64,000 bases of DNA from Arthrobacter sp. MMS18-M83 (lineage in GTDB: Bacteria; Actinomycetota; Actinomycetes; Actinomycetales; Micrococcaceae): positions 4,898,001-4,962,000 of the forward strand of contig NZ_CP113343.1 in the NCBI RefSeq assembly GCF_026683955.1, written 5' to 3'. Of the stretch, positions 17,961-58,837 are shown piece by piece. The position numbers and the translations under genes were made by a program. Position 1 is the first letter of the stretch. Each line of letters begins with the position of its first letter. The notes beneath the pieces were generated by a model, which saw nothing but the letters and a program-made list of their open reading frames with translations, did not search any database and had not been told where the DNA came from.

Positions 17961-18111
17961 CCCATTACGAGGTTGGCTGGTCGGGAGACGCTAGAGGGTC
18001 TTCCTCCCGAAGCTGCTCGCCGCGGTAAGGATCTAGACCCTGCACCCGCGATTGCCCTATCGTTGGGGAACCGAGGACAGTCGGCCCGGCGCTCCGCATC
18101 GGAGGTACATG

Positions 18112-18705
18112 ATGGGCATCATCTCGTCTAAATTCCACGGCAGACGGCAGAGCGGCAACCCAGCATTGCCGCCTGGCCAATACCAGACCGAGAGCTTTCC
18201 AGTCCTTACGGCCGGCCCTGCGCCCCGAATCCCCACCGCTGACTGGGAATTCTTCATCACCACCGAGGCAGGTCAGCGCCATGCGTGGTCTTGGGATGCA
18301 TTCATGGCCTTGCCCCAGACAGACATCCATACGGACATTCATTGCGTGACCAGTTGGTCCAGGCTGGGCACCTCGTGGCGAGGAGTGTCCCTGGATACTT
18401 TATTTGAGAACGTGGAAACCAGCTGCGAGTTCACGACGGCCCACTCCTACGGCGGATACACGACCAACGTCCCGCTCCCGGATCTCCTTGGTGGCCGAGC
18501 ATGGGTAGCCTGGGAATTCGACGGTGCGCCACTTGAACGCGCGCACGGCGGACCTGCCCGCCTCATCGTGCCCCATCTCTACTTTTGGAAGAGCGCAAAA
18601 TGGATCAACGGCATCGAGCTGACGCGGGGTGATGATCCTGGTTTCTGGGAATCCAACGGCTACCACATCCACGGCGACCCGTGGCGGGAGGAGCGTTACT
18701 CATGA
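18112..18705 (+). CDS. Sulfite-oxidase-fold molybdopterin oxidoreductase
   Basis: 197 residues. Two adjacent ATGs at 18109 and 18112; the second is preferred because GGAGGT then has 5-base spacing. The oxidoreductase molybdopterin-binding fold is shown by IHCVTSWSRLGTSWRGV, with the Cys as probable molybdenum ligand, SYGGYTTNVPL and the C-terminal WKSAKWINGIEL. There is no dimerisation domain, so it is closer in architecture to the YedY/MsrP catalytic unit than to sulfite oxidase, yet has no Tat signal and should be cytoplasmic. The reductase gene follows at once; together they form a short electron-transfer system. Confidence 0.85.
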   Translation: MGIISSKFHGRRQSGNPALPPGQYQTESFPVLTAGPAPRIPTADWEFFITTEAGQRHAWSWDAFMALPQTDIHTDIHCVTSWSRLGTSWRGVSLDTLFENVETSCEFTTAHSYGGYTTNVPLPDLLGGRAWVAWEFDGAPLERAHGGPARLIVPHLYFWKSAKWINGIELTRGDDPGFWESNGYHIHGDPWREERYS

Positions 18706-18715
18706 GGATCGCCAG

Positions 18716-19453
18716 GTGAGTACGTTGTGGCGCGTGGCCGACGTCGTCAGCAGCATGCCCGAAACGGAGACCGCCAGAACCATAGGGCTGCGCGTGAACG
18801 GCCTGAACGGCAACCTCGCCGGACAGCACATCGACATCCGCCTCACTGCAGACGACGGCTACACGGCCGTGCGCTCATACTCCGTGGCCAGGGCAGGCAT
18901 GGACGAAACCCTGGAGATCACCGTTGACGAGTTGGCCAACGGAGAAGTCTCCCCCTATCTGGTCAGAGACCTGGTGGTTGGGGACCAGTTGGAAATCCGG
19001 GGGCCGGTGGGTGGCTGGTTCGTCTGGAAACCGACTGACACAAACTCTATTCAGCTGATTGCTGGAGGATCCGGCATCGTGCCACTCATGTCCATGATCC
19101 GCGCACACCATGCATCAGAAAATCCGGCGCAGTTCCGGCTGCTCTATTCGCTCAAATCGCCCGAAGCGGGCTTCTACCGGGAGGAGCTCGGTACCCTCGG
19201 CCAAGAATCCTCCAAGCTCACCGTCGACTACATCTTCACGCGCAAGACGCCACCGGGTTGGCCGACTGCTGCGCAACGGCTCACGGCAGAAACCTTGCTG
19301 GCCAACATCTTGCCACCCGACCCCACCCCGGACATCTTCATCTGCGGCCAGACCGTATTTGTGGAAACGGTTGCGGAATGGCTCGTACAGGCGGGATATC
19401 CGACCGCTTCCATCAAGACCGAACGCTTCGGCGGAACGGGAGGAACCCGGTGA
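18716..19453 (+). CDS. Ferredoxin reductase-type flavoprotein (FAD/NAD-binding)
   Basis: 245 residues from GTG 18716 (GAGG eight bases upstream). FAD motif RSYSVAR, NAD(P)-binding GGSGIVPLMSMIR, late ICGQTVFVE and C-terminal ERFG: a ferredoxin-NADP reductase-like module with no iron-sulfur domain of its own. It probably passes electrons between NAD(P)H and the neighbouring molybdoenzyme. Starts 10 bases after that gene and ends in a GTGA overlap with the DUF6510 gene. Confidence 0.87.
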   Translation: MSTLWRVADVVSSMPETETARTIGLRVNGLNGNLAGQHIDIRLTADDGYTAVRSYSVARAGMDETLEITVDELANGEVSPYLVRDLVVGDQLEIRGPVGGWFVWKPTDTNSIQLIAGGSGIVPLMSMIRAHHASENPAQFRLLYSLKSPEAGFYREELGTLGQESSKLTVDYIFTRKTPPGWPTAAQRLTAETLLANILPPDPTPDIFICGQTVFVETVAEWLVQAGYPTASIKTERFGGTGGTR

Positions 19454-19797
19454 GTGCCAACAACGGCTCCGATTCTCCAGGCGCCAAGGAACCGAGCTTC
19501 GACGATCTGGACATCGCTGGAATCGAAGGCAATTCAATACCCCATCTGGATGGAAACGCGGTGGCGGGACAGCTGTGGGAGCTGTTTCGCTTCGATATCG
19601 TCGCCGCGATCGGACGGTGCAGGCACTGCGGTGCTGTCCGCGTTTTCGGGGAGACGATGGTGTACGTTGACGCGCCCGGGATCGTTGTCCGCTGCGCTTC
19701 CTGCGAGGGCGTGCTGCTGCGCCTCGTAGAGACCCCCACTCAGTACTGGCTCGACGTGAGCGGACTCAGCCATCTGCAGATCGACCGCGAGGGCTAG
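19450..19797 (+). CDS. DUF6510-type zinc-ribbon protein
   Basis: 115 residues starting at GTG 19450, overlapping the preceding stop. Two CxxC knuckles, CRHCG and CASCEG, about 30 residues apart, give a zinc ribbon; the end is LDVSGLSHLQI. I recall DUF6510 proteins occurring in just this context next to a sulfite-oxidase-like protein and a reductase, though function is unknown. Likely a small structural or electron-transfer partner of the molybdoenzyme. Confidence 0.75.
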   Translation: MSANNGSDSPGAKEPSFDDLDIAGIEGNSIPHLDGNAVAGQLWELFRFDIVAAIGRCRHCGAVRVFGETMVYVDAPGIVVRCASCEGVLLRLVETPTQYWLDVSGLSHLQIDREG

Positions 19798-22455: not shown

Positions 22456-23385
22456 ATGTCATTGACCTTGGAACGCCACGCCCGGATCGGAATCATTGGC
22501 GGCACGGGCCTCTACAAGCTGCCCGGAGCGGTCGTGCTCGACACGCTCGATCTCGCGACGCCGTTCGGGCCGCCTTCAAGCCCCGTCACCGTCGCCCGGC
22601 TGGCAGCGCCGGATGGACCTGGCGGCGCGGACGGCCCAGTGGTCGCGTTTTTGAGCCGGCACGGGCGCGTGCACAGCATTGCCCCCCAGCAGATCAACTA
22701 CCGGGCCAACCTCTGGGCGTTCAAGAGCCTAGGCGTGGAGGCTGTCATCTCCTCCGCGGCTGTGGGCGGACTGGCTTCCAGCCACGGAACCGGCATGTTT
22801 GCCGTGCCGGACCAGGTTCTGGACAGGACCTGGGGCCGCTCGGACACCTTCTACGATGGCTCGCTGCCCACCGGAGTGCAGCATCTGCCCGCCGCCGAGC
22901 CCTACAGCGCTCCGCTGCGCGCGGCACTCATCTCCGCCCTGGAGCGACAGGGGGAAGACTTCGCTGAGGCGGCCACTGTAGCCACCATCAACGGTCCGCG
23001 CTTCTCCACCAAGGCCGAGTCCGCGGTCTTGGTCCAGGCAGGTGCGCACCTCATTAGCATGACCCAATACCCGGAGCCCGTGCTCGCGGCAGAGTTGAAC
23101 ATGCACTTCGCCGCGCTGGCATTCATTACGGATGCCGACACCGGGCACGACGGCTCCGAACCCGTGACGGCAGAGCTGGTGCTGGGCCGGCTGGCGGCGG
23201 CGCAGCCCCGGATCCTGTCCGTGTTGTCCGACGCGGTGCGGATCGTTTGGGCGGGGCTGGCCAACGCTGAGCCGGCGGACGACGGCGGAAACTGGCGGAT
23301 GGCGCTCATGCCGGACGCGGCGGTCGCTGCCGTGATGGGCGACGCCGGCCCTCTCCGCCCCGGCGCGGAAGGGACAGGGCCGTGA
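22456..23385 (+). CDS. mtnP: S-methyl-5'-thioadenosine phosphorylase
   Basis: 309 residues. Family motifs in order: GIIGGTGLY, SRHGRVHSI, QQINYRANLWA, GPRFSTKAES, MTQYPE and ITDADTG; the Asp-x-Asp at the purine site fits adenine rather than hypoxanthine bases. The enzyme splits methylthioadenosine with phosphate into adenine and 5-methylthioribose-1-phosphate. No methionine-salvage gene (mtnK, A, B, C, D) is nearby; instead five sugar-transfer genes follow in overlap, which suggests that the methylthio-sugar itself is the wanted product. Stop overlaps the epimerase GTG start. Length is above the usual 260-290 because of an acidic insert. Confidence 0.88.
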   Translation: MSLTLERHARIGIIGGTGLYKLPGAVVLDTLDLATPFGPPSSPVTVARLAAPDGPGGADGPVVAFLSRHGRVHSIAPQQINYRANLWAFKSLGVEAVISSAAVGGLASSHGTGMFAVPDQVLDRTWGRSDTFYDGSLPTGVQHLPAAEPYSAPLRAALISALERQGEDFAEAATVATINGPRFSTKAESAVLVQAGAHLISMTQYPEPVLAAELNMHFAALAFITDADTGHDGSEPVTAELVLGRLAAAQPRILSVLSDAVRIVWAGLANAEPADDGGNWRMALMPDAAVAAVMGDAGPLRPGAEGTGP

Positions 23386-24449
23386 GAATTCTGGTCACAG
23401 GAGGAGCCGGTTTCATAGGTAGCCATGTTGTCGATGCCGCGGTGGCCCGCGGCTGGGAGGTCCGAATCCTTGACTCACTGGATCCGGCGGTGCACCCGGA
23501 TCCACCACAAGGACTTCCCGGCGTTCCCCTGCTGGTGGGCGACGTCGGAGACCCGGCCGCGGTGGCAGCGGCGCTCGCGGGGGTCGACGTCGTCGTCCAT
23601 CAGAGCGCCAAAGTCGGCCTCGGCGTGGACTTCTCCGACGCCCCGGACTACATCCGCAACAATGACCTGGCCACGGCCGTGCTCCTGGCAGGCATGGCCG
23701 CGGCCGGCATCGACAAGCTGGTACTGGCTTCCTCCATGGTGGTCTACGGAGAAGGCGCCTACACGGACTCAGCCGGCAAGCCCGTGCGCCCGCGGCCGCG
23801 CCTGGTGGAAGACCTCGTACACGGAATCTTTGATCCCCGGGACCCTGCGACCGGGGAGCTCCTACTGCCGACACTGGTCACCGAAGACGCGGCCCTCGAT
23901 CCGCGGAACGTCTATGCCGCCTCCAAATTGGCCCAGGAAAACCTGGCGTCCGCCTGGGCGCGCTCAACCGGAGGCACTGCGATCGCTCTTCGGTACCACA
24001 ACGTCTACGGCCCTCGGATGCCCAAAAACACCCCCTACGCGGGCGTGGCCAGCCTGTTCCGTTCTGCACTGGCCCGCGGAGAGGCGGTGAAGGTGTTCGA
24101 GGACGGCGGCCAGCGCCGCAGCTTTGTCCACGTCGCGGACGTGGCGGAAGCAAATCTGTGCTCGATTGATGCATTGGCGAGCGGCAGGGCCGTGGCGCCA
24201 GGCAGCTTCAGGGCGTACAACATCGGTGCAGCGGAGGTCCACACCGTTGGACAGGTCGCGGCGGTCCTGAGCTCTGTTGGTGGAGGGCCGGACCCTGTGG
24301 TCACGGGCGAATTCCGGCTAGGCGACGTCCGGCATATCACCGCCAGCTCGGCTCGCGCGCGAGCCGAGCTGGGCTGGATCCCCGAGCACGGTTTTGAGGA
24401 CGGCATGCACGAGTTCGCCACGGCCCCGCTGCGCGGAGAACCTAGCTAG
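23382..24449 (+). CDS. NAD-dependent sugar epimerase (GalE-like), MTX-type cluster
   Basis: 355 residues starting at GTG 23382 within the mtnP stop. TGGAGFIGSHV NAD motif at the N-terminus, ASSMVVYGEGA, Tyr-x3-Lys in YAASKLAQE, LRYHNVYGPRMP and RSFVHVADVAEA: an extended SDR like GalE/RmlB. In M. tuberculosis, galE3 (Rv0536) follows the MTA phosphorylase Rv0535 in the same way. The proposed job is C3 inversion turning a methylthioribose derivative into the xylo form; substrate is inferred, not seen. Confidence 0.85.
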   Translation: MRILVTGGAGFIGSHVVDAAVARGWEVRILDSLDPAVHPDPPQGLPGVPLLVGDVGDPAAVAAALAGVDVVVHQSAKVGLGVDFSDAPDYIRNNDLATAVLLAGMAAAGIDKLVLASSMVVYGEGAYTDSAGKPVRPRPRLVEDLVHGIFDPRDPATGELLLPTLVTEDAALDPRNVYAASKLAQENLASAWARSTGGTAIALRYHNVYGPRMPKNTPYAGVASLFRSALARGEAVKVFEDGGQRRSFVHVADVAEANLCSIDALASGRAVAPGSFRAYNIGAAEVHTVGQVAAVLSSVGGGPDPVVTGEFRLGDVRHITASSARARAELGWIPEHGFEDGMHEFATAPLRGEPS

Positions 24450-24508
24450 ACAGCCAGCTCCGGCTCAGCGTCAGTTGAGGTTCGGACGCGACGCCGTCGG
24501 CCTGTTCG

Positions 24509-25411
24509 GTGGCTGCCCGAGGGCAAACGTCCCGGTTCCGTAAGGATTTCCGCCTGTCGCGCCGGGCCTGGGGCTTCTACGGTCAAAGGGTGGAGAAACA
24601 GCAGAGTGGTTCGCGCGGTTCGCAGGATGGAATCGGTTTGGAAAGCAGCCAGGGCGGACCAGGCGAGGACTTCGGGGAGCTACCCGTGTTGGTGGATGTG
24701 GTGTTGCCCTGCCTCAACGAGCGCTCGGCCCTTCCCCAGGTGCTGATGGCCCTGCCGCTTGGATACCGGGCGATCGTCGTGGACAACGGATCCACCGACG
24801 GCTCCGGTGCGCTGGCCGCCAGTCTGGGCGCGACCGTCGTCGACGAACCGAGGCGCGGCTTCGGCGCCGCAGCGCATGCCGGGCTGTTGGCTTCCACTGC
24901 GGAGTTTGTAGCCTTTTGCGATTGCGATGGTTCCTTGGACCCGGCCCAACTGGCCCCGATGCTGGAGCTCGTCCGCGCAGGGCAAGCCGATCTGGTGCTG
25001 GGTGCCCGGCATCCGGCCCCCGGTGCCTGGCCGATCCACGCCCGCCTGGCCAACATGGCCCTGAGCCGGCGGTTGCGCCGGCTGACGGGGATCCCTGTCA
25101 CGGATCTGGGTCCCCTTCGACTGGCTCGGCGCAGCGCGTTGCTAAGACTGGACCTCACAGACCGGCGCAGCGGCTATCCGCTGGAAATGTTCCTCAAAGC
25201 CCACCGCGACGGCTGGCGTGTAGCCGAGGTCCCGGTCGCCTATGCGCCACGGCTGGGGAAGTCCAAGGTGACGGGGACGCTGCGCGGAACCCTTACGGCC
25301 CTCAAAGACATGGGGACGCAGTTGGCGGCAGCTTCGCGGCAGGCGTCGGGGACGAAGGACGGCGGGCCGGCGGATGGACCTTCGGCCGATGCCCAAGGAG
25401 CGACGCCGTGA
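24509..25411 (+). CDS. GT2 glycosyltransferase, polyprenyl-phosphate-sugar synthase type
   Basis: 300 residues if started at GTG 24509; GTG 24590 (27 codons shorter) is also possible, and the conserved domain only starts near residue 62. GT-A motifs: VDVVLPCLNE, VDNGSTDGSG, metal-binding DCDGSLDP, and the DPM1-like TDLGPLRLARR and GYPLEMFLKAHRDGW. Such enzymes load sugars on to polyprenyl phosphate on the inner face of the membrane. The counterpart in M. tuberculosis would be Rv0539, implicated in methylthioxylose addition. No membrane segment. Confidence 0.83.
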   Translation: MAARGQTSRFRKDFRLSRRAWGFYGQRVEKQQSGSRGSQDGIGLESSQGGPGEDFGELPVLVDVVLPCLNERSALPQVLMALPLGYRAIVVDNGSTDGSGALAASLGATVVDEPRRGFGAAAHAGLLASTAEFVAFCDCDGSLDPAQLAPMLELVRAGQADLVLGARHPAPGAWPIHARLANMALSRRLRRLTGIPVTDLGPLRLARRSALLRLDLTDRRSGYPLEMFLKAHRDGWRVAEVPVAYAPRLGKSKVTGTLRGTLTALKDMGTQLAAASRQASGTKDGGPADGPSADAQGATP

Positions 25412-26115
25412 ATCTCACCATCGCCGTGATTGCCAAAGAATGTATCCCGGGCATGGTCAAGACGCGCCTCACTCCCCCGCTCACCCAAGAGCAGGCCGCA
25501 GCCCTGGCCCAGACCAGCCTCAGCCAGACGCTGGACACGGTACGATCCCTCCCCGCGGCCAGGCGTTTGCTGGTGTTCGAGGGGACGCCTGGCAACAGGG
25601 ACGCTGCTGGTTTTGAGGTGCTTGCCCAGAGTGCCGGCGGGCTGGACGAGCGGCTGGCAGCCATCTGTTCGCTCGCGACCGGCCCGCTGCTGATTCTGGG
25701 TATGGACACCCCCCAGCTGTGCCGGGACCAGCTGGTCCCGCTGCTGGCGGACTGGTCAACGCCCGCCCCGGCACCACGCCGCGACGCGTGGCTCGGCCCG
25801 GCGTCGGACGGCGGCTTCTGGGCCTTGGGCCTGCACCGGCCCGACGGCGGCCTGATCCGCGGCGTGGAAATGTCCACTCCGCAGACCGGGGCGCATCAAT
25901 TCGCCCGGCTGGCCGACGCCGGCCTGGACGTGGGGCTGCTCCCCGTCTTGAGGGACGTCGACCACTTCGCCGATGCCCTGGTTGCCGCGCGAAAATGCAG
26001 CGGCACCCCGTTTGCCCGCGCGGTGGACCGCCTTGCCAGAGGACTGCCAGCGCCAGAGGGGCCGGTTGGGGTGCCCTCTGAAGTGGCGCCCAACCGATCG
26101 GCGGCCCTGCGATGA
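25408..26115 (+). CDS. DUF2064 / TIGR04282-like putative sugar-nucleotide transferase
   Basis: 235 residues from GTG 25408 overlapping the GT2 stop. Starts with IAVIAKECIPGMVKTRLTPP, then ILGMDTPQL and GPASDGGFWALGL, the hallmarks of DUF2064 (cofC-like nucleotidyltransferase fold; also named arsenosugar-pathway glycosyltransferase in some models). The M. tuberculosis counterpart would be Rv0540. It may activate the methylthio-pentose 1-phosphate, since the motif order is that of nucleotidyltransferases; this is inference. The last 20 residues are low-complexity. Confidence 0.82.
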   Translation: MNLTIAVIAKECIPGMVKTRLTPPLTQEQAAALAQTSLSQTLDTVRSLPAARRLLVFEGTPGNRDAAGFEVLAQSAGGLDERLAAICSLATGPLLILGMDTPQLCRDQLVPLLADWSTPAPAPRRDAWLGPASDGGFWALGLHRPDGGLIRGVEMSTPQTGAHQFARLADAGLDVGLLPVLRDVDHFADALVAARKCSGTPFARAVDRLARGLPAPEGPVGVPSEVAPNRSAALR

Positions 26116-26843
26116 GCATCCAGACAGCCCCCATCGGGGGTGCCAAGGCCGCAGTCCCTTTTGCCGGCACCCGTCCGGTTGCCCAATTTGGCCAAGGTGG
26201 ACACGAACCGTACGCACGCTGCCTGCCCCTCGGCCTGGGGCGCCTGACGTTGCGTCCGGAATCTGCCATGCCGGGGTCCAGCGGGCATGTCACCTTCAGC
26301 ATGCTCCGCTGGTCCGCCCCGGCCACTGCGGACGAACGCGATCTGTTGCGCACCCTTCGGGGGCCGATTCTCGATGTGGGCTGCGGCCCCGGCCGGATGC
26401 TTGAGGCCGCCCGGGAGCTGGGACTGGCGTCGATGGGCGTCGATTTGAGTGCCGCCGCGGTACGGCTGGCCACCGACCGCGGCGGCGCTGCCATCCTTGG
26501 CTCCATCTTCGACCCGGTCCCGCACGAGCGCGGCTGGGGTTCGGCTCTTTTGCTGGACGGGAACATCGGCATCGGCGGAAATATCCGGGTGCTGCTGGAG
26601 CGCGTTGCCTCACTGTTGTCGCCGGGCGGGCAGGTGCTGGCAGAGGCGGAAACCCCGGACGACCTTGATGTGGCCTATCTGGCCGTGCTGGAGGATTCAG
26701 ATGGGCATGCCAGTGCCGCCTTTCCCTGGGCCCGTGCCGGCGCAAGTGCGCTGGCCCTCCACGCGGCCCGGGCCGGGCTCGATTGCGTTGCCAAGCGGAC
26801 CTTTCAGGGCCGCGTCTTTCTGACCTTGGAATTGCGACCATGA
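26112..26843 (+). CDS. Class I SAM-dependent methyltransferase
   Basis: 243 residues, starting in an ATGA overlap. SAM motif I ILDVGCGPGRMLEAA near residue 87, motif with GVDLSAAAV, and LLSPGGQVLAEAE for post-motif III. Residues 1-50 are proline-rich and poorly conserved in look. It may methylate the glycan made by its neighbours or the sugar intermediate; there is no counterpart that I remember in the mycobacterial locus, so this is the most distinct part of the cluster. Confidence 0.82.
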   Translation: MSIQTAPIGGAKAAVPFAGTRPVAQFGQGGHEPYARCLPLGLGRLTLRPESAMPGSSGHVTFSMLRWSAPATADERDLLRTLRGPILDVGCGPGRMLEAARELGLASMGVDLSAAAVRLATDRGGAAILGSIFDPVPHERGWGSALLLDGNIGIGGNIRVLLERVASLLSPGGQVLAEAETPDDLDVAYLAVLEDSDGHASAAFPWARAGASALALHAARAGLDCVAKRTFQGRVFLTLELRP

Positions 26844-28369
26844 AATCCGACAGCGGCCACCGCCGCAGCCACCACCGGGACAAGCCAGAAGACACCCAGG
26901 GCCTGCGCACAATGCCTGGTTGGACGGGGCACCGCCCGTCGCCCGGAGGCCATGCGACCGGCCCGGTCGGGAACGGCTCGGCGAGGAAAAGGCCACCGCA
27001 CCCTGGTGCCGCGGCTGAGGCGGTGGCGCTGTCTCTGATAGCACTGCTGGCCGGCGTCGTCTGGTGGACGGTCACTACGGATCCATCAGCAGAGTGGGTG
27101 TCCCCTGTTGGCACCCTGGCCGCCTGGGCCCTCTTCGTTCCGGCAGCACTGGTTGCACGCCGGATCCCGGGACGGCACGCTGCCGCCGTCGTGCTCCTGG
27201 GCTCCCTGCTGGTGGGAGCCGCGGCTATCGCCGCACCGCCCGCCACCAGCAACGATTCCGCCCGCTATGCGTGGGACGGCATCATCCAGAAAGCCGGAAT
27301 CTCGCCGTACGCCCACGTTCCGGCGGACGACGCGCTGCGGCCACTGCGTCCGGCATGGCTGTTCCAGGATGCCGGGCCGGACGGAACCTGCCATACCAAT
27401 CCCTTCCCCACGGGCACCGAGACCTCCACCAACATTCCCAGCGGCGGCACCCTGTGCACGGCCATCAACCGGCCAACCGTGCCCACCGTCTATCCGGCCG
27501 TGGCGGAGCTGTATTTCCTGGCCGTGCGGCTCATCCCCCGTTCCGAGGTCGGGTTCATTGCCTTCCAACTGACGGGGCTGCTCCTCAGCCTCTCCATAAC
27601 GGTGGCGCTGCTGGCGTTCCTGCGCCGCACCGGAAGACCCGCACACCAGGCGGTCTGGTGGGCGTGGTCTCCGCTGGTCGCCTTTGAAGCCATCAACGGC
27701 GCCCACGTGGACACGCTCGGCGCGGCCCTAGCCCTGGCGGCAGCGCTGCTGTTGGTGGGTGGGCGCGCACTCGGGTCCGGAATAGCCTTTGGCGCGGCCG
27801 TGGCCACCAAGCTCATTCCCGCCATCAGCGCCCCGGCCCTGCTGTACCGCCGGCCGGTCCGCTTCGTGGCTGCGGCCGTGGCCACGTTTACCGTGGCGTA
27901 CGTGCCGTATGTCCTCGCCAGCGGTTGGGCAGTACTCGGCTACCTGCCCGAATACCTTCGCTCGGAGGGGTACGACGGGCAGGACAGCCCGCGTTTCACG
28001 CTGCTGAAACTAGTGCTCCCGGCTAGCTGGGCAGGGCCGGCAGCCCTGGTGCTACTGCTGGGTCTGGCCTACTACGTGTGGCGGACCACCAACGCCACCC
28101 GGCCCTGGGACGGGCAGGTCTTGATGGTCGGAGGAACGCTTCTGATCGTTTCGCCCAGCTACCCCTGGTACGCACTGCTGCTCCTGCCGTTCGTGGTGCT
28201 GAGCCGTCGTTACGAGTTCACCGCCATCGCCCCCGTGCTGGCCATGATGTATTTCACCGGCGCCGAACCTTACGGCCAGCTAACTGCGCGGCTGGGCTTG
28301 GGTGCCGTCGCCGTGCTCTTGGTGGTTGCCACGGTGGCGCGACGACGGCCGCAGCAAGCAACGACGTAG
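26840..28369 (+). CDS. Membrane glycosyltransferase, GT87/DUF2029-like
   Basis: 509 residues from ATG 26840 overlapping the methyltransferase stop. About 55 hydrophilic residues, then ten or more membrane segments. Between the second and third lies an outside loop with DSARYAWDGIIQKAGISPYAHVP, an acidic loop usual for GT-C enzymes, and a Cys pair (TCHTN, TLCTA) that might form a disulfide. Later PSYPWYALLLLP resembles the end of the GT87 fold. GT-C enzymes transfer sugars from polyprenyl phosphate on the outer face. The M. tuberculosis counterpart would be Rv0541c. Last gene of the operon. Confidence 0.83.
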   Translation: MKSDSGHRRSHHRDKPEDTQGLRTMPGWTGHRPSPGGHATGPVGNGSARKRPPHPGAAAEAVALSLIALLAGVVWWTVTTDPSAEWVSPVGTLAAWALFVPAALVARRIPGRHAAAVVLLGSLLVGAAAIAAPPATSNDSARYAWDGIIQKAGISPYAHVPADDALRPLRPAWLFQDAGPDGTCHTNPFPTGTETSTNIPSGGTLCTAINRPTVPTVYPAVAELYFLAVRLIPRSEVGFIAFQLTGLLLSLSITVALLAFLRRTGRPAHQAVWWAWSPLVAFEAINGAHVDTLGAALALAAALLLVGGRALGSGIAFGAAVATKLIPAISAPALLYRRPVRFVAAAVATFTVAYVPYVLASGWAVLGYLPEYLRSEGYDGQDSPRFTLLKLVLPASWAGPAALVLLLGLAYYVWRTTNATRPWDGQVLMVGGTLLIVSPSYPWYALLLLPFVVLSRRYEFTAIAPVLAMMYFTGAEPYGQLTARLGLGAVAVLLVVATVARRRPQQATT

Positions 28370-56834: not shown

Positions 56835-57305
56835 TCAGGGGTGCGGATGAATCGGATCGACCCAGTAGACTTCTTCCGGCGGCTCGACAGGCTCGATCTC
56901 CAGGTTGATGACAACTGGATCCTGACCGCTGCGGACAAGCACGCAACTGAGAGCCTCGGTCTTGCTCGCGTTGATCTCTTGATGGGGTACGAACGGGGGA
57001 ACAAAAATAAAATCGCCGGGCCCCGCCTCTGCGACAAACTCTAGGTTGTCGCCCCATCGCATACGTGCCCGGCCGCTGACAACGTATATGACACTTTCCA
57101 GTTCTCCATGATGGTGAGCCCCGGTCTTGGCATTGGCATCAATGGTGACTGTGCCTGCCCAAAGTTTGTTGGCCCCCGCCCGGGCGTGTGTGATTGCGGC
57201 CGCTCTTGACATGCCAGGCGTTTGCGGCGTATTCAGATCGAGTTGCGATCCCGCAATGATCTTGACTCCGTGCTCGCGCCAATTTGGCTGTGACTCAGAG
57301 CTCAT
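56835..57305 (-). CDS. Cupin domain protein
   Basis: 156 residues from ATG 57305 with GGAGGG before it. Single cupin: GAHHHGELESVIYVVSGRARMRW carries the His/His/Glu metal set (quoted in part: GAHHHGELE), and GDFIFVPPFVPHQEIN the second motif with His. A metal-dependent isomerase, dioxygenase or sugar-binding role is possible. Starts about 140 bases before the divergent sulfite oxidase gene. Confidence 0.87.
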   Translation of the reverse strand: MSSESQPNWREHGVKIIAGSQLDLNTPQTPGMSRAAAITHARAGANKLWAGTVTIDANAKTGAHHHGELESVIYVVSGRARMRWGDNLEFVAEAGPGDFIFVPPFVPHQEINASKTEALSCVLVRSGQDPVVINLEIEPVEPPEEVYWVDPIHPHP

Positions 57306-57442
57306 TTCATCCCTCCGCCAAGCACCGGTTAACACCCGCCTTGGACAAGGATAGTCCCGCCCAGTGCCACCGAAGTGATGCAGCCCGGAGCCCGGCCCGG
57401 GGACGGCGAGTGGTAGAATCAGCGGCACGCGAAGGAGTGAAC

Positions 57443-58837
57443 ATGGCTCTGTTTGTTGTGCGTCATCAGCATTCAGCTGAGCGATGCCTCACGCAGGACC
57501 CCCGTATGGGAGCCATGCTGTTGAATCACCTGGGCCGCCCGAACGCCAGGCAGTACGGCGTGGAGATCCAGGGCGAGGCGGTTGTACAGGGTGAGCACAC
57601 GCTGTATTTCATCGCGGAGGCCAGCGACGAGAACCGCCTGCGTGACTTCATGCAGACGTTCCAAGGGATGGGCAGCCTGGACATCTACCCCGCCTCTACG
57701 TGGGCCCTCGCCGTCGCCGGCGGCGGCTGCGGCACGCCAGCGCCTATGAGTGAGTCCGCGTCGGCGATCGATCCCGCGGATGCCTGCCAGCAGGCTATCG
57801 ACGCCGGCCTGGTTGTTCAGCGTGTGCACCCACTCAACTGCGAGACCCCGATTCCGGCGCTGATCGGCGCCATGGTGCCCAACGCCCATTTTTACGTGCG
57901 CAATCACTTCCAGATCCCAAACCTTGACCCGTCCGTCTTCCGGCTTGAGGTCGGCGGGTTCGTGAAACGGAAGCTCAGCCTCAGCCTGGACGATTTGCGC
58001 AACCTTCCCTCACAAACCCTCACCGTCACCCTCGAGTGCGCCGGCAACGGCCGCGCACTCTTTGAGCCATCGATCGAGGGCGAGAAATGGAACCTGGGGG
58101 CCGTGAGCACCGCGGAATGGACAGGTGTGCCGCTGGTGGAAGTGCTGGATCGGGCCGGTGCGCAGCCGACTGCGCGCGAGGTCCTGTTCAGAGGCGCAGA
58201 CGGCGGGACCGTGGCGGGCCGCTTGGGACCCGTCCGCTTCGAGCGCAGCCTCCGGCTCGACCAGTGCCACGACACCGACCTGCTGCTGGCCTACGCGATG
58301 AATGGCGAACCGTTGCCGGTGCAGCACGGCTATCCCCTGCGCCTGGTGGTTCCCGACTGGTATGCCGTGGCATCGGTCAAATGGTTGACCGGCATCGAGC
58401 TCCTCGATCGGCCGTTCCATGGCCACTACCAACACGATAAGTACTGGTACGAATGGGAACGCGACGGCGAACCCGTCCGCGAGCCGGCGACGCTGCAGAG
58501 GGTACGGGCCCTGATCACCGAGCCGGCGCCCGACCACCAGACCCGGCGCGGCGACGTCGCTATCCGCGGCGTGGCTTGGTCCGGGGCCGGTCCGATCGAC
58601 CGGGTCGAAATCAGAGTGGGCGGAGGAGGCTGGCAGCCCGCCCACCTCGTCGGCGAACGCAAGCGCCACAGCTGGCAGCCGTGGGAGCAGATCATTAGCG
58701 TCCCGGAGCCCGGCATACTGACTGTGCAGGCCCGCGCAACCGACCTTGCCGGCCGAACCCAGCCCGAACGGGCCGAGTGGAACCGCCTTGGCTACGGCAA
58801 CAACTCGATCCATCAGATCGATGTCCGCATCATCTGA
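57443..58837 (+). CDS. Sulfite oxidase-family molybdoenzyme with additional N-terminal domain
   Basis: 464 residues from ATG 57443 (GAAGGAG). Residues 1-95 form a small alpha/beta ferredoxin-like domain (GEHTLYFIAEASDENRL, GSLDIYPAST) resembling DUF4242/DUF3303-type or muconolactone-isomerase-like proteins. From about 130 the sulfite oxidase domain starts: PLNCETPIPAL, FYVRNHFQIP, ECAGNGRALFEP with the molybdenum-ligand Cys, GYPLRLVVPDWY and VKWLTGIEL; then the Ig-like dimerisation domain (IRGVAWSGAGPIDRVEI). No signal peptide and no heme domain, so the electron acceptor is unknown. Confidence 0.88.
   Translation: MALFVVRHQHSAERCLTQDPRMGAMLLNHLGRPNARQYGVEIQGEAVVQGEHTLYFIAEASDENRLRDFMQTFQGMGSLDIYPASTWALAVAGGGCGTPAPMSESASAIDPADACQQAIDAGLVVQRVHPLNCETPIPALIGAMVPNAHFYVRNHFQIPNLDPSVFRLEVGGFVKRKLSLSLDDLRNLPSQTLTVTLECAGNGRALFEPSIEGEKWNLGAVSTAEWTGVPLVEVLDRAGAQPTAREVLFRGADGGTVAGRLGPVRFERSLRLDQCHDTDLLLAYAMNGEPLPVQHGYPLRLVVPDWYAVASVKWLTGIELLDRPFHGHYQHDKYWYEWERDGEPVREPATLQRVRALITEPAPDHQTRRGDVAIRGVAWSGAGPIDRVEIRVGGGGWQPAHLVGERKRHSWQPWEQIISVPEPGILTVQARATDLAGRTQPERAEWNRLGYGNNSIHQIDVRII

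What the first reader, a model, noticed from the sequence alone, without database searches (positions are those of the whole stretch)
22456..28369. Methylthioxylose-type (MTX) glycan cluster outside the mycobacteria
Six genes run head to tail; five junctions are stop-start overlaps except one 59-bp gap: MTA phosphorylase, GalE-like epimerase, DPM1-like GT2, DUF2064, SAM methyltransferase, GT-C membrane transferase. From memory, M. tuberculosis Rv0535-Rv0536-Rv0539-Rv0540-Rv0541c has the same families in the same order, and Rv0539/Rv0541c are tied to the 5-deoxy-5-methylthio-xylofuranose cap of lipoarabinomannan. No methionine-salvage genes accompany the phosphorylase. I infer that methylthioribose-1-phosphate is epimerised, activated, loaded on polyprenyl phosphate and moved to a cell-envelope glycan (lipomannan-like) of this organism. 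The methyltransferase has no counterpart that I recall and may add a further modification.
Basis: partly seen in the sequence, partly recalled or inferred. Interest (0 to 1): 0.85.

Follow-up and report, generated by a model that had tools for sequence, protein, structure and literature searches.

The report
Methylthio-sugar-like glycan gene cluster
A bacterium related to Arthrobacter carries six adjacent genes that probably turn a cell waste product into an unusual sugar on its cell surface, using sugar-making steps known from mycobacteria but a different final enzyme.

Summary
The six-gene cluster (22456-28369, +) is real: four junctions are 4-bp overlaps, the fifth a 59-bp gap. In Micrococcaceae a strong phosphorylase match and the GT2 enzyme occur in exactly the same 16 of 197 genomes, and mtnA was found in 0 of 20 genomes, so the phosphorylase looks dedicated to the cluster. 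Likely pathway: methylthioadenosine (MTA) or 5'-deoxyadenosine to a 5-modified pentose-1-phosphate, nucleotide activation, epimerisation, polyprenyl-phosphate donor, transfer to an envelope glycan. Up to the donor this matches mycobacterial methylthioxylose (MTX) biosynthesis.

(2) The last enzyme is not of the Rv0541c (MtxT) family: GT87 and MtxT-type transferases show no detectable profile similarity and exclude each other in 130 loci (39 against 77, none with both, 14 with neither). (3) The methyltransferase has counterparts (111 of 130 loci) and tends to occur with a membrane molybdoenzyme that this window lacks.

Not shown: the methylthio group, the acceptor, any activity. Two known MTA sources (spermidine synthase, DTW) were not found here.

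The parts
22456..23385 (+). MTAP-family nucleoside phosphorylase (predicted methylthioadenosine / 5'-deoxyadenosine phosphorylase)
   Evidence: PF01048 105.7 bits; NCBIfam MTAP 236.6 bits, under the curated 274.85; D-x-D motif (TDAD at residue 225) kept in at least 38 of 40 cluster MTAPs, one TDAN, one not shown; the other of the two PF01048 proteins of the genome is a PunP
23382..24449 (+). NAD-dependent epimerase (extended SDR; predicted ribo-to-xylo or similar epimerisation)
   Evidence: PF01370 159.2 bits; Y-x-x-x-K and glycine-rich motif; near GT2 in 121 of 130 loci
24509..25411 (+). GT2 polyprenyl-phosphate glycosyltransferase (MtxS-like); the true start may be 24590 or later
   Evidence: PF00535 70.5 bits; 52% (L039) and 56% (L038) identical to mycobacterial-type counterparts in alignment A1; nearest solved relatives by profile are ArnC (E 2e-15) and dolichol-P-mannose synthase (E 6e-13)
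25408..26115 (+). DUF2064 / TIGR04282 CofC-like protein (predicted pentose-1-phosphate nucleotidyltransferase)
   Evidence: PF09837 58 bits; TIGR04282 102.1 bits, under its curated 134; present in 120 of 130 loci
26112..26843 (+). class I SAM-dependent methyltransferase, substrate unknown
   Evidence: PF13489 30.5 bits and related models; counterpart in 111 of 130 loci
26840..28369 (+). GT87 membrane glycosyltransferase (GT-C fold; predicted final transferase)

Best explanation
The cluster is an envelope-glycan module of the methylthioxylose kind. The phosphorylase splits MTA (or 5'-deoxyadenosine) into adenine and a 5-modified ribose-1-phosphate. The DUF2064 protein activates this to a nucleotide sugar. 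The epimerase changes one hydroxyl, as in ribo to xylo. GT2 loads the pentofuranose onto polyprenyl phosphate. After flipping, the GT87 protein transfers it to an extracytoplasmic glycan, possibly a lipomannan-like mannan. The methyltransferase adds a further modification. Shown here: gene content, homology, dedication of the phosphorylase within Micrococcaceae, predicted folds, exchange of the last enzyme between loci. Inferred: every reaction, the order of activation and epimerisation, the sulfur, the flipping step and the acceptor.
For: A strong MTAP match and GT2 occur in exactly the same 16 of 197 Micrococcaceae genomes. Across the phylum 39 of 43 genomes with GT2 of 170 bits or more have MTAP, against 153 of 253 others. 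mtnA 0 of 20. The order MTAP-EPI-GT2-DUF2064-GT-C is shared with mycobacterial-type loci. The six genes are contiguous on the Arthrobacter sp. U41 conjugative plasmid; a Rhodococcus plasmid carries Mo protein, MT, MtxT-type, MTAP, EPI, GT2 and DUF2064 genes with a GtrA-family flippase candidate nearby. The GT2 profile's best solved relative is ArnC, a polyprenyl-P-pentose synthase. The GT87 model has a GT-C fold. From print: MTX of M. tuberculosis LAM starts from MTA and uses a decaprenyl-P donor and a GT-C enzyme (PMC11127046, passage); MtxS = Rv0539, MtxT = Rv0541c (PMC8780516, passage).
Against: No spermidine synthase (PF01564, 0 matches in this genome) and no DTW protein (PF03942, 0 of 8 genomes, where only 2 of 14 control genomes ring): the MTA source is unknown. 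The phosphorylase is under the curated MTAP cut-off. The last enzyme is not of the MtxT family. In 91 of 130 loci no MTAP lies within 9.5 kb of GT2, and 4 of 43 phylum genomes with GT2 showed no MTAP. The GT87 fold is closest to mannosyltransferases. No flippase was identified in the window.
Confidence: 0.7

Rival explanations
1. The true substrate in this organism is 5'-deoxyadenosine, the waste of radical SAM enzymes. The glycan sugar is then a sulfur-free 5-deoxy-pentofuranose.
For: Spermidine synthase and DTW were not found in the genome. The window lacks the cluster-type Mo enzyme that could act on sulfur: the six PF00174 proteins of the genome score 50.7-75.5 bits on that profile, against more than 400 for most cluster-type proteins. 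MTA phosphorylases are reported as promiscuous for 5'-deoxyadenosine (PMC8102628, passages).
Against: The closest described pathway yields methylthioxylose. MTA sources other than the two tested were not excluded. The Mo enzyme is also missing near two mycobacterial-type clusters (L036, L039).
Confidence: 0.2
2. GT2 and GT87 form an ordinary polyprenyl-phosphate-mannose pair for mannan side chains, and the phosphorylase only clears MTA or 5'-deoxyadenosine.
For: Dolichol-phosphate mannose synthase is the second solved family matched by the GT2 profile. The GT87 model is nearest to mannosyltransferases ALG3, GPI mannosyltransferase I and PimE. JGI names some homologues alpha-1,2-mannosyltransferase.
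Against: Perfect co-occurrence of strong MTAP matches and GT2 in Micrococcaceae; the other 181 genomes do without both. Homologous donor genes go with a different transferase in mycobacteria, where MTX is the product (PMC11127046). An epimerase and a nucleotidyltransferase are not needed for mannose. ArnC, a pentose enzyme, is the better solved match of GT2.
Confidence: 0.1
3. The six genes are a chance juxtaposition of unrelated housekeeping genes.
For: None found beyond the generality of the single families.
Against: 4-bp overlaps; recurrent neighbourhood in 130 loci; the same six genes contiguous on a conjugative plasmid.
Confidence: 0.02

Closest known systems
MTX capping pathway of mycobacterial lipoarabinomannan (MtxS Rv0539, MtxT Rv0541c)
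   Same: MTAP, epimerase, GT2 and DUF2064 genes are homologous and in the same order as in mycobacterial-type loci; GT-C transferase gene at the end; inferred polyprenyl-P donor.
   Different: The final transferase is GT87, not of the MtxT family; no Emb-type match in the genome; a methyltransferase gene that two of four mycobacterial-type clusters with MTAP (L036 and L039 of L036, L038, L039, L040) lack.
PimE / ALG3 / GPI mannosyltransferase I (GT-C, polyprenyl- or dolichyl-P-mannose users)
   Different: 13-18% identity; genetic context is a pentose-donor type pathway, not mannose.
Three-component pentofuranose systems (PRPP-based, GT136)
   Same: Lipid-linked pentofuranose donor and GT-C transfer outside the cytoplasm (PMC11127046, passages).
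   Different: Start from PRPP, not from MTA; none of the six genes of this cluster is a phosphoribosyl-polyprenol synthase.
MsrPQ methionine sulfoxide reductase with HprRS (E. coli)
   Same: Related loci, not the window, add a cytochrome b561-like domain fused to a sulfite-oxidase-fold Mo domain, often with a two-component pair.
   Different: NCBIfam scores reach sulfite dehydrogenases and MsrP alike, all far under cut-off; direction and substrate unknown; absent from the window.

Membership tests
MTX (MtxS/MtxT) pathway | MTA phosphorylase encoded with the pathway | tested here: met
   below the NCBIfam curated cut-off, so an MTAP-family protein rather than a curated MTAP
MTX (MtxS/MtxT) pathway | GT2 homologous to the mycobacterial protein at the MtxS position | tested here: met
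   52% identity to L039 (inferred M. lacus) and 56% to L038 in A1, same gene order; M. tuberculosis itself not compared
MTX (MtxS/MtxT) pathway | final transferase of the MtxT (Rv0541c) family | tested here: not met
   profile comparison GT87 vs MtxT family: probability 0.1, E 0.46; no MtxT-family match among the window's ORFs of 90 aa or more at E <= 1e-5
MTX (MtxS/MtxT) pathway | final transferase has a GT-C fold | tested here: met
MTX (MtxS/MtxT) pathway | acceptor is lipoarabinomannan (Emb-type arabinosyltransferases present) | tested here: not met
   no PF04602 match in G000 at E <= 0.001; 3 in the mycobacterial-type G150
MTX (MtxS/MtxT) pathway | polyprenyl-P-MTX synthase activity; methylthioxylose present in the glycan | not testable with these tools
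   needs enzymology, NMR or MS
MTX (MtxS/MtxT) pathway | a source of MTA in the genome | tested here: inconclusive
   PF01564 0 matches, PF03942 0 matches; other sources not tested
CAZy GT87 | PF09594 match over the curated cut-off | tested here: met
   43.6 bits against 25
Methionine salvage pathway | mtnA isomerase | tested here: not met
   TIGR00512 0 of 20 genomes, controls ring in 9 of 14
MsrPQ-like system | cytochrome b plus sulfite-oxidase-fold Mo protein in the cluster | tested here: not met
   present in 93 of 130 related loci but not at the window's cluster; the genome's PF00174 proteins score only 50.7-75.5 bits on its profile

The most novel reading that the evidence does not exclude
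Across Actinomycetota, and carried by plasmids, SAM waste (MTA or 5'-deoxyadenosine) is built into an envelope glycan as a 5-modified pentofuranose. In the full version, a membrane cytochrome-b molybdoenzyme under two-component control reduces the sulfoxide form (MSX) back to the thioether. The coat is then a renewable oxidant sink, a glycan counterpart of MsrPQ/HprRS. The final transferase was swapped repeatedly between two GT-C families without detectable sequence similarity, to fit different acceptors. The window would be a reduced version without the repair enzyme.
Probability: 0.2. Interest if true: 0.87.

Novelty: new variant of a known kind. Interest (0 to 1): 0.62.

Why it matters
A 2024 paper says it is unclear whether the MTX reaction exists outside lipoarabinomannan assembly (PMC11127046, passage). 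The genes suggest that it does: they occur in four Micrococcaceae genomes tested without an Emb match and in a Streptomyces-type genome (G171) with neither an Emb nor an MptB match. Harmless soil strains become test beds, and antibodies or tests aimed at MTX should be checked against environmental actinobacteria. It also names a possible outlet for MTA or 5'-deoxyadenosine in genomes without mtnA.

Tried and rejected
Window Mo trio (18052-19797) as part of the pathway: set aside, because short PF00174 proteins of the same size occur also in G446 and G008, which showed no GT2. The two-component pair as a core part: doubtful, because RR-HK with another Mo protein stands alone in this genome (L204) and in GT2-less G446. 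The MTA-source search failed. Direct comparison with M. tuberculosis: not obtained. Among the 110 of 148 mycobacterial-type genomes with a match none looked like it by size and place (my judgement, from recall), and none of the legible names among the 120 listed homologues was M. tuberculosis. The key paper (Angala 2017, PMC5357196) is not held and was not read. Solved-structure searches by sequence found nothing for DUF2064 or the MtxT profile, and only E 0.012 for GT87. An all-against-all clustering of neighbours merged unrelated frames and was dropped. Rows dropped before counting: 136 loci gave 130, after removal of 3 duplicates (L119, L131, L160) and 3 weak paralogues (L051, L052, L088). 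The score thresholds and the gap (96.4 to 120 bits) used to part MTAP from PNP-like matches are my choices, made after seeing the scores. Several loci end at contig ends, so gene counts are lower bounds. The tree is a quick one, without bootstrap. The fold lists of the two transferases overlap, so they show a shared superfamily, not different folds. Papers: only search listings and passages were seen, no whole text.
Full report
Observation. The six genes at 22456-28369 are intact, co-directional and tightly packed. The genome is 5.11 Mb in 2 contigs. The closest listed GT87 homologue is 90% identical, from Arthrobacter sp. FW306-04-A. Cluster GC is 68.6%, against 63.1% and 63.3% in the 10 kb on either side, which fits an acquired module but does not prove one.

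The phosphorylase. The genome has two PF01048 matches. The other one is a purine nucleoside phosphorylase over its curated cut-off, so this is the only MTAP found, and no MTA/SAH nucleosidase of that family was found. It keeps the D-x-D motif, as do at least 38 of 40 cluster MTAPs. It scores below the curated MTAP cut-off (236.6 against 274.85 bits); of the 197 Micrococcaceae genomes only one has a match over that cut-off.

Dedication. In 197 Micrococcaceae genomes GT2 is found in 16 at E <= 1e-25, in six genera. TIGR01694 matches of 120 bits or more are found in the same 16 genomes (in G438 the gene is split over two frames). Another 55 genomes have matches of 96.4 bits or less that mostly cover profile positions 71-240, the PNP-like part. 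With that cut no genome has one without the other (10^-23.1 without correction for relatedness). In the phylum sample 39 of 43 genomes with GT2 of 170 bits or more have an MTAP match at E <= 1e-30, against 153 of 253 others (p 5e-5); the four without are G028, G205, G256 and G294. mtnA was found in 0 of 20 genomes, 16 of them cluster carriers.

Distribution. GT2 matches at E <= 1e-20 occur in 76 of 296 genomes of the phylum, weak paralogues included, and, with a mycobacterial-type query at E <= 1e-40, in 110 of 148 of a Mycobacterium-type genus. Named loci include Streptomyces, Kitasatospora, Micromonospora, Frankia, Saccharopolyspora, Curtobacterium, Cryobacterium, Solirubrobacter and Acidimicrobiales. 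In 130 loci, fetched because they hold GT2, the genes within 9.5 kb are: epimerase 121, DUF2064 120, methyltransferase 111, cytochrome-b Mo protein 93, two-component pair 82, MTAP 39.

Mobility. The Arthrobacter sp. U41 conjugative plasmid carries GT2-DUF2064-MT-GT87-MTAP-EPI, with the Mo gene and a small gene beside them. The unit lies between perfect 893-bp inverted repeats. A Rhodococcus plasmid (typed non-mobilizable) carries Mo protein-small gene-MT-MtxT-type-MTAP-EPI-GT2-DUF2064 and a GtrA-family protein. A Kitasatospora linear plasmid carries epimerase, two-component pair, DUF2064, MT, cytochrome b and Mo genes, with no GT2 annotated in the stretch. An M. abscessus plasmid carries the epimerase, an MtxT-family protein and a weakly matching Mo gene, without GT2 in the stretch.

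The methyltransferase and the Mo enzyme. They are associated (89 loci with both, 22 MT only, 4 Mo only, 15 neither; Fisher 9.6e-7 without correction for relatedness). The Mo protein has an N-terminal cytochrome b561-like part (weak Pfam match), an internal RR pair and a sulfite-oxidase fold with an invariant cysteine. Scores do not decide between sulfite dehydrogenase and MsrP. That it acts on methylsulfinyl sugar is my inference; MTX and its sulfoxide MSX are both reported in LAM (PMC8531672, passages), and E. coli MsrPQ is under HprSR (PMC9302797, passages). The window's cluster lacks this gene: the genome's six PF00174 proteins score only 50.7-75.5 bits on its profile.

Acceptor and substrate. 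No Emb-type match was found in this genome; the mycobacterial-type G150 has three. Two MptB matches were found here and none in the Streptomyces-type genome G171, so a lipomannan-like acceptor is possible here but cannot be general. Spermidine synthase and DTW were not found (the DTW control rings in only 2 of 14), which leaves the MTA source open and makes 5'-deoxyadenosine a serious alternative (PMC8102628, passages).

Verdict. It works like the MTX pathway up to the lipid donor. It is not filed as a member of the MtxT/LAM-capping system, because two defining features were tested and not met. In the listings of searches (some capped, e.g. 40 of 207 and 20 of 37) and the passages read, I saw no description of the module outside mycobacteria; absence from this library is not absence from print.

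Noticed in passing
window 18052-19797 (+): Three genes: short molybdopterin (PF00174) protein, FAD/NAD oxidoreductase, DUF6510-like protein (the last name is recalled, no call). Short PF00174 proteins of the same size occur in genomes without the glycan GT2.
   Followed up: partly
window 57266-58834 (+): Another sulfite-oxidase-type Mo protein with a Mo-co dimerisation domain, 60 bits on the profile of the cluster-type enzyme.
   Followed up: no
L204:6713-10447 (own genome, G000:C1 about 826.7-830.4 kb): Response regulator, histidine kinase and a 614-aa Mo protein as a stand-alone unit; the kinase scores 466 bits on the profile of the kinase found beside glycan clusters.
   Followed up: partly
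L208:3466-12883 (Arthrobacter sp. U41 plasmid): Perfect 893-bp inverted repeats bracket the whole glycan unit; each carries the same 228-aa gene, lipoprotein-like by eye, with homologues in 10 other fetched loci plus one short match.
   Followed up: partly
at least L080, L081, L144, L161, L163, L168: Genes that I recognise by eye as molybdenum-cofactor genes (moaC, moeA, mogA-like) lie beside the glycan cluster; not confirmed by a family search.
   Followed up: no
L153:11957-12577 and 31 other records (two of them duplicates): A small hydrophobic protein, often next to the cluster-type Mo gene, with no Pfam family and no match in the window.
   Followed up: partly
L086 (G438): The MTAP gene and the methyltransferase gene are each split over two frames in an otherwise similar cluster: a decaying copy or sequencing error.
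   Followed up: no
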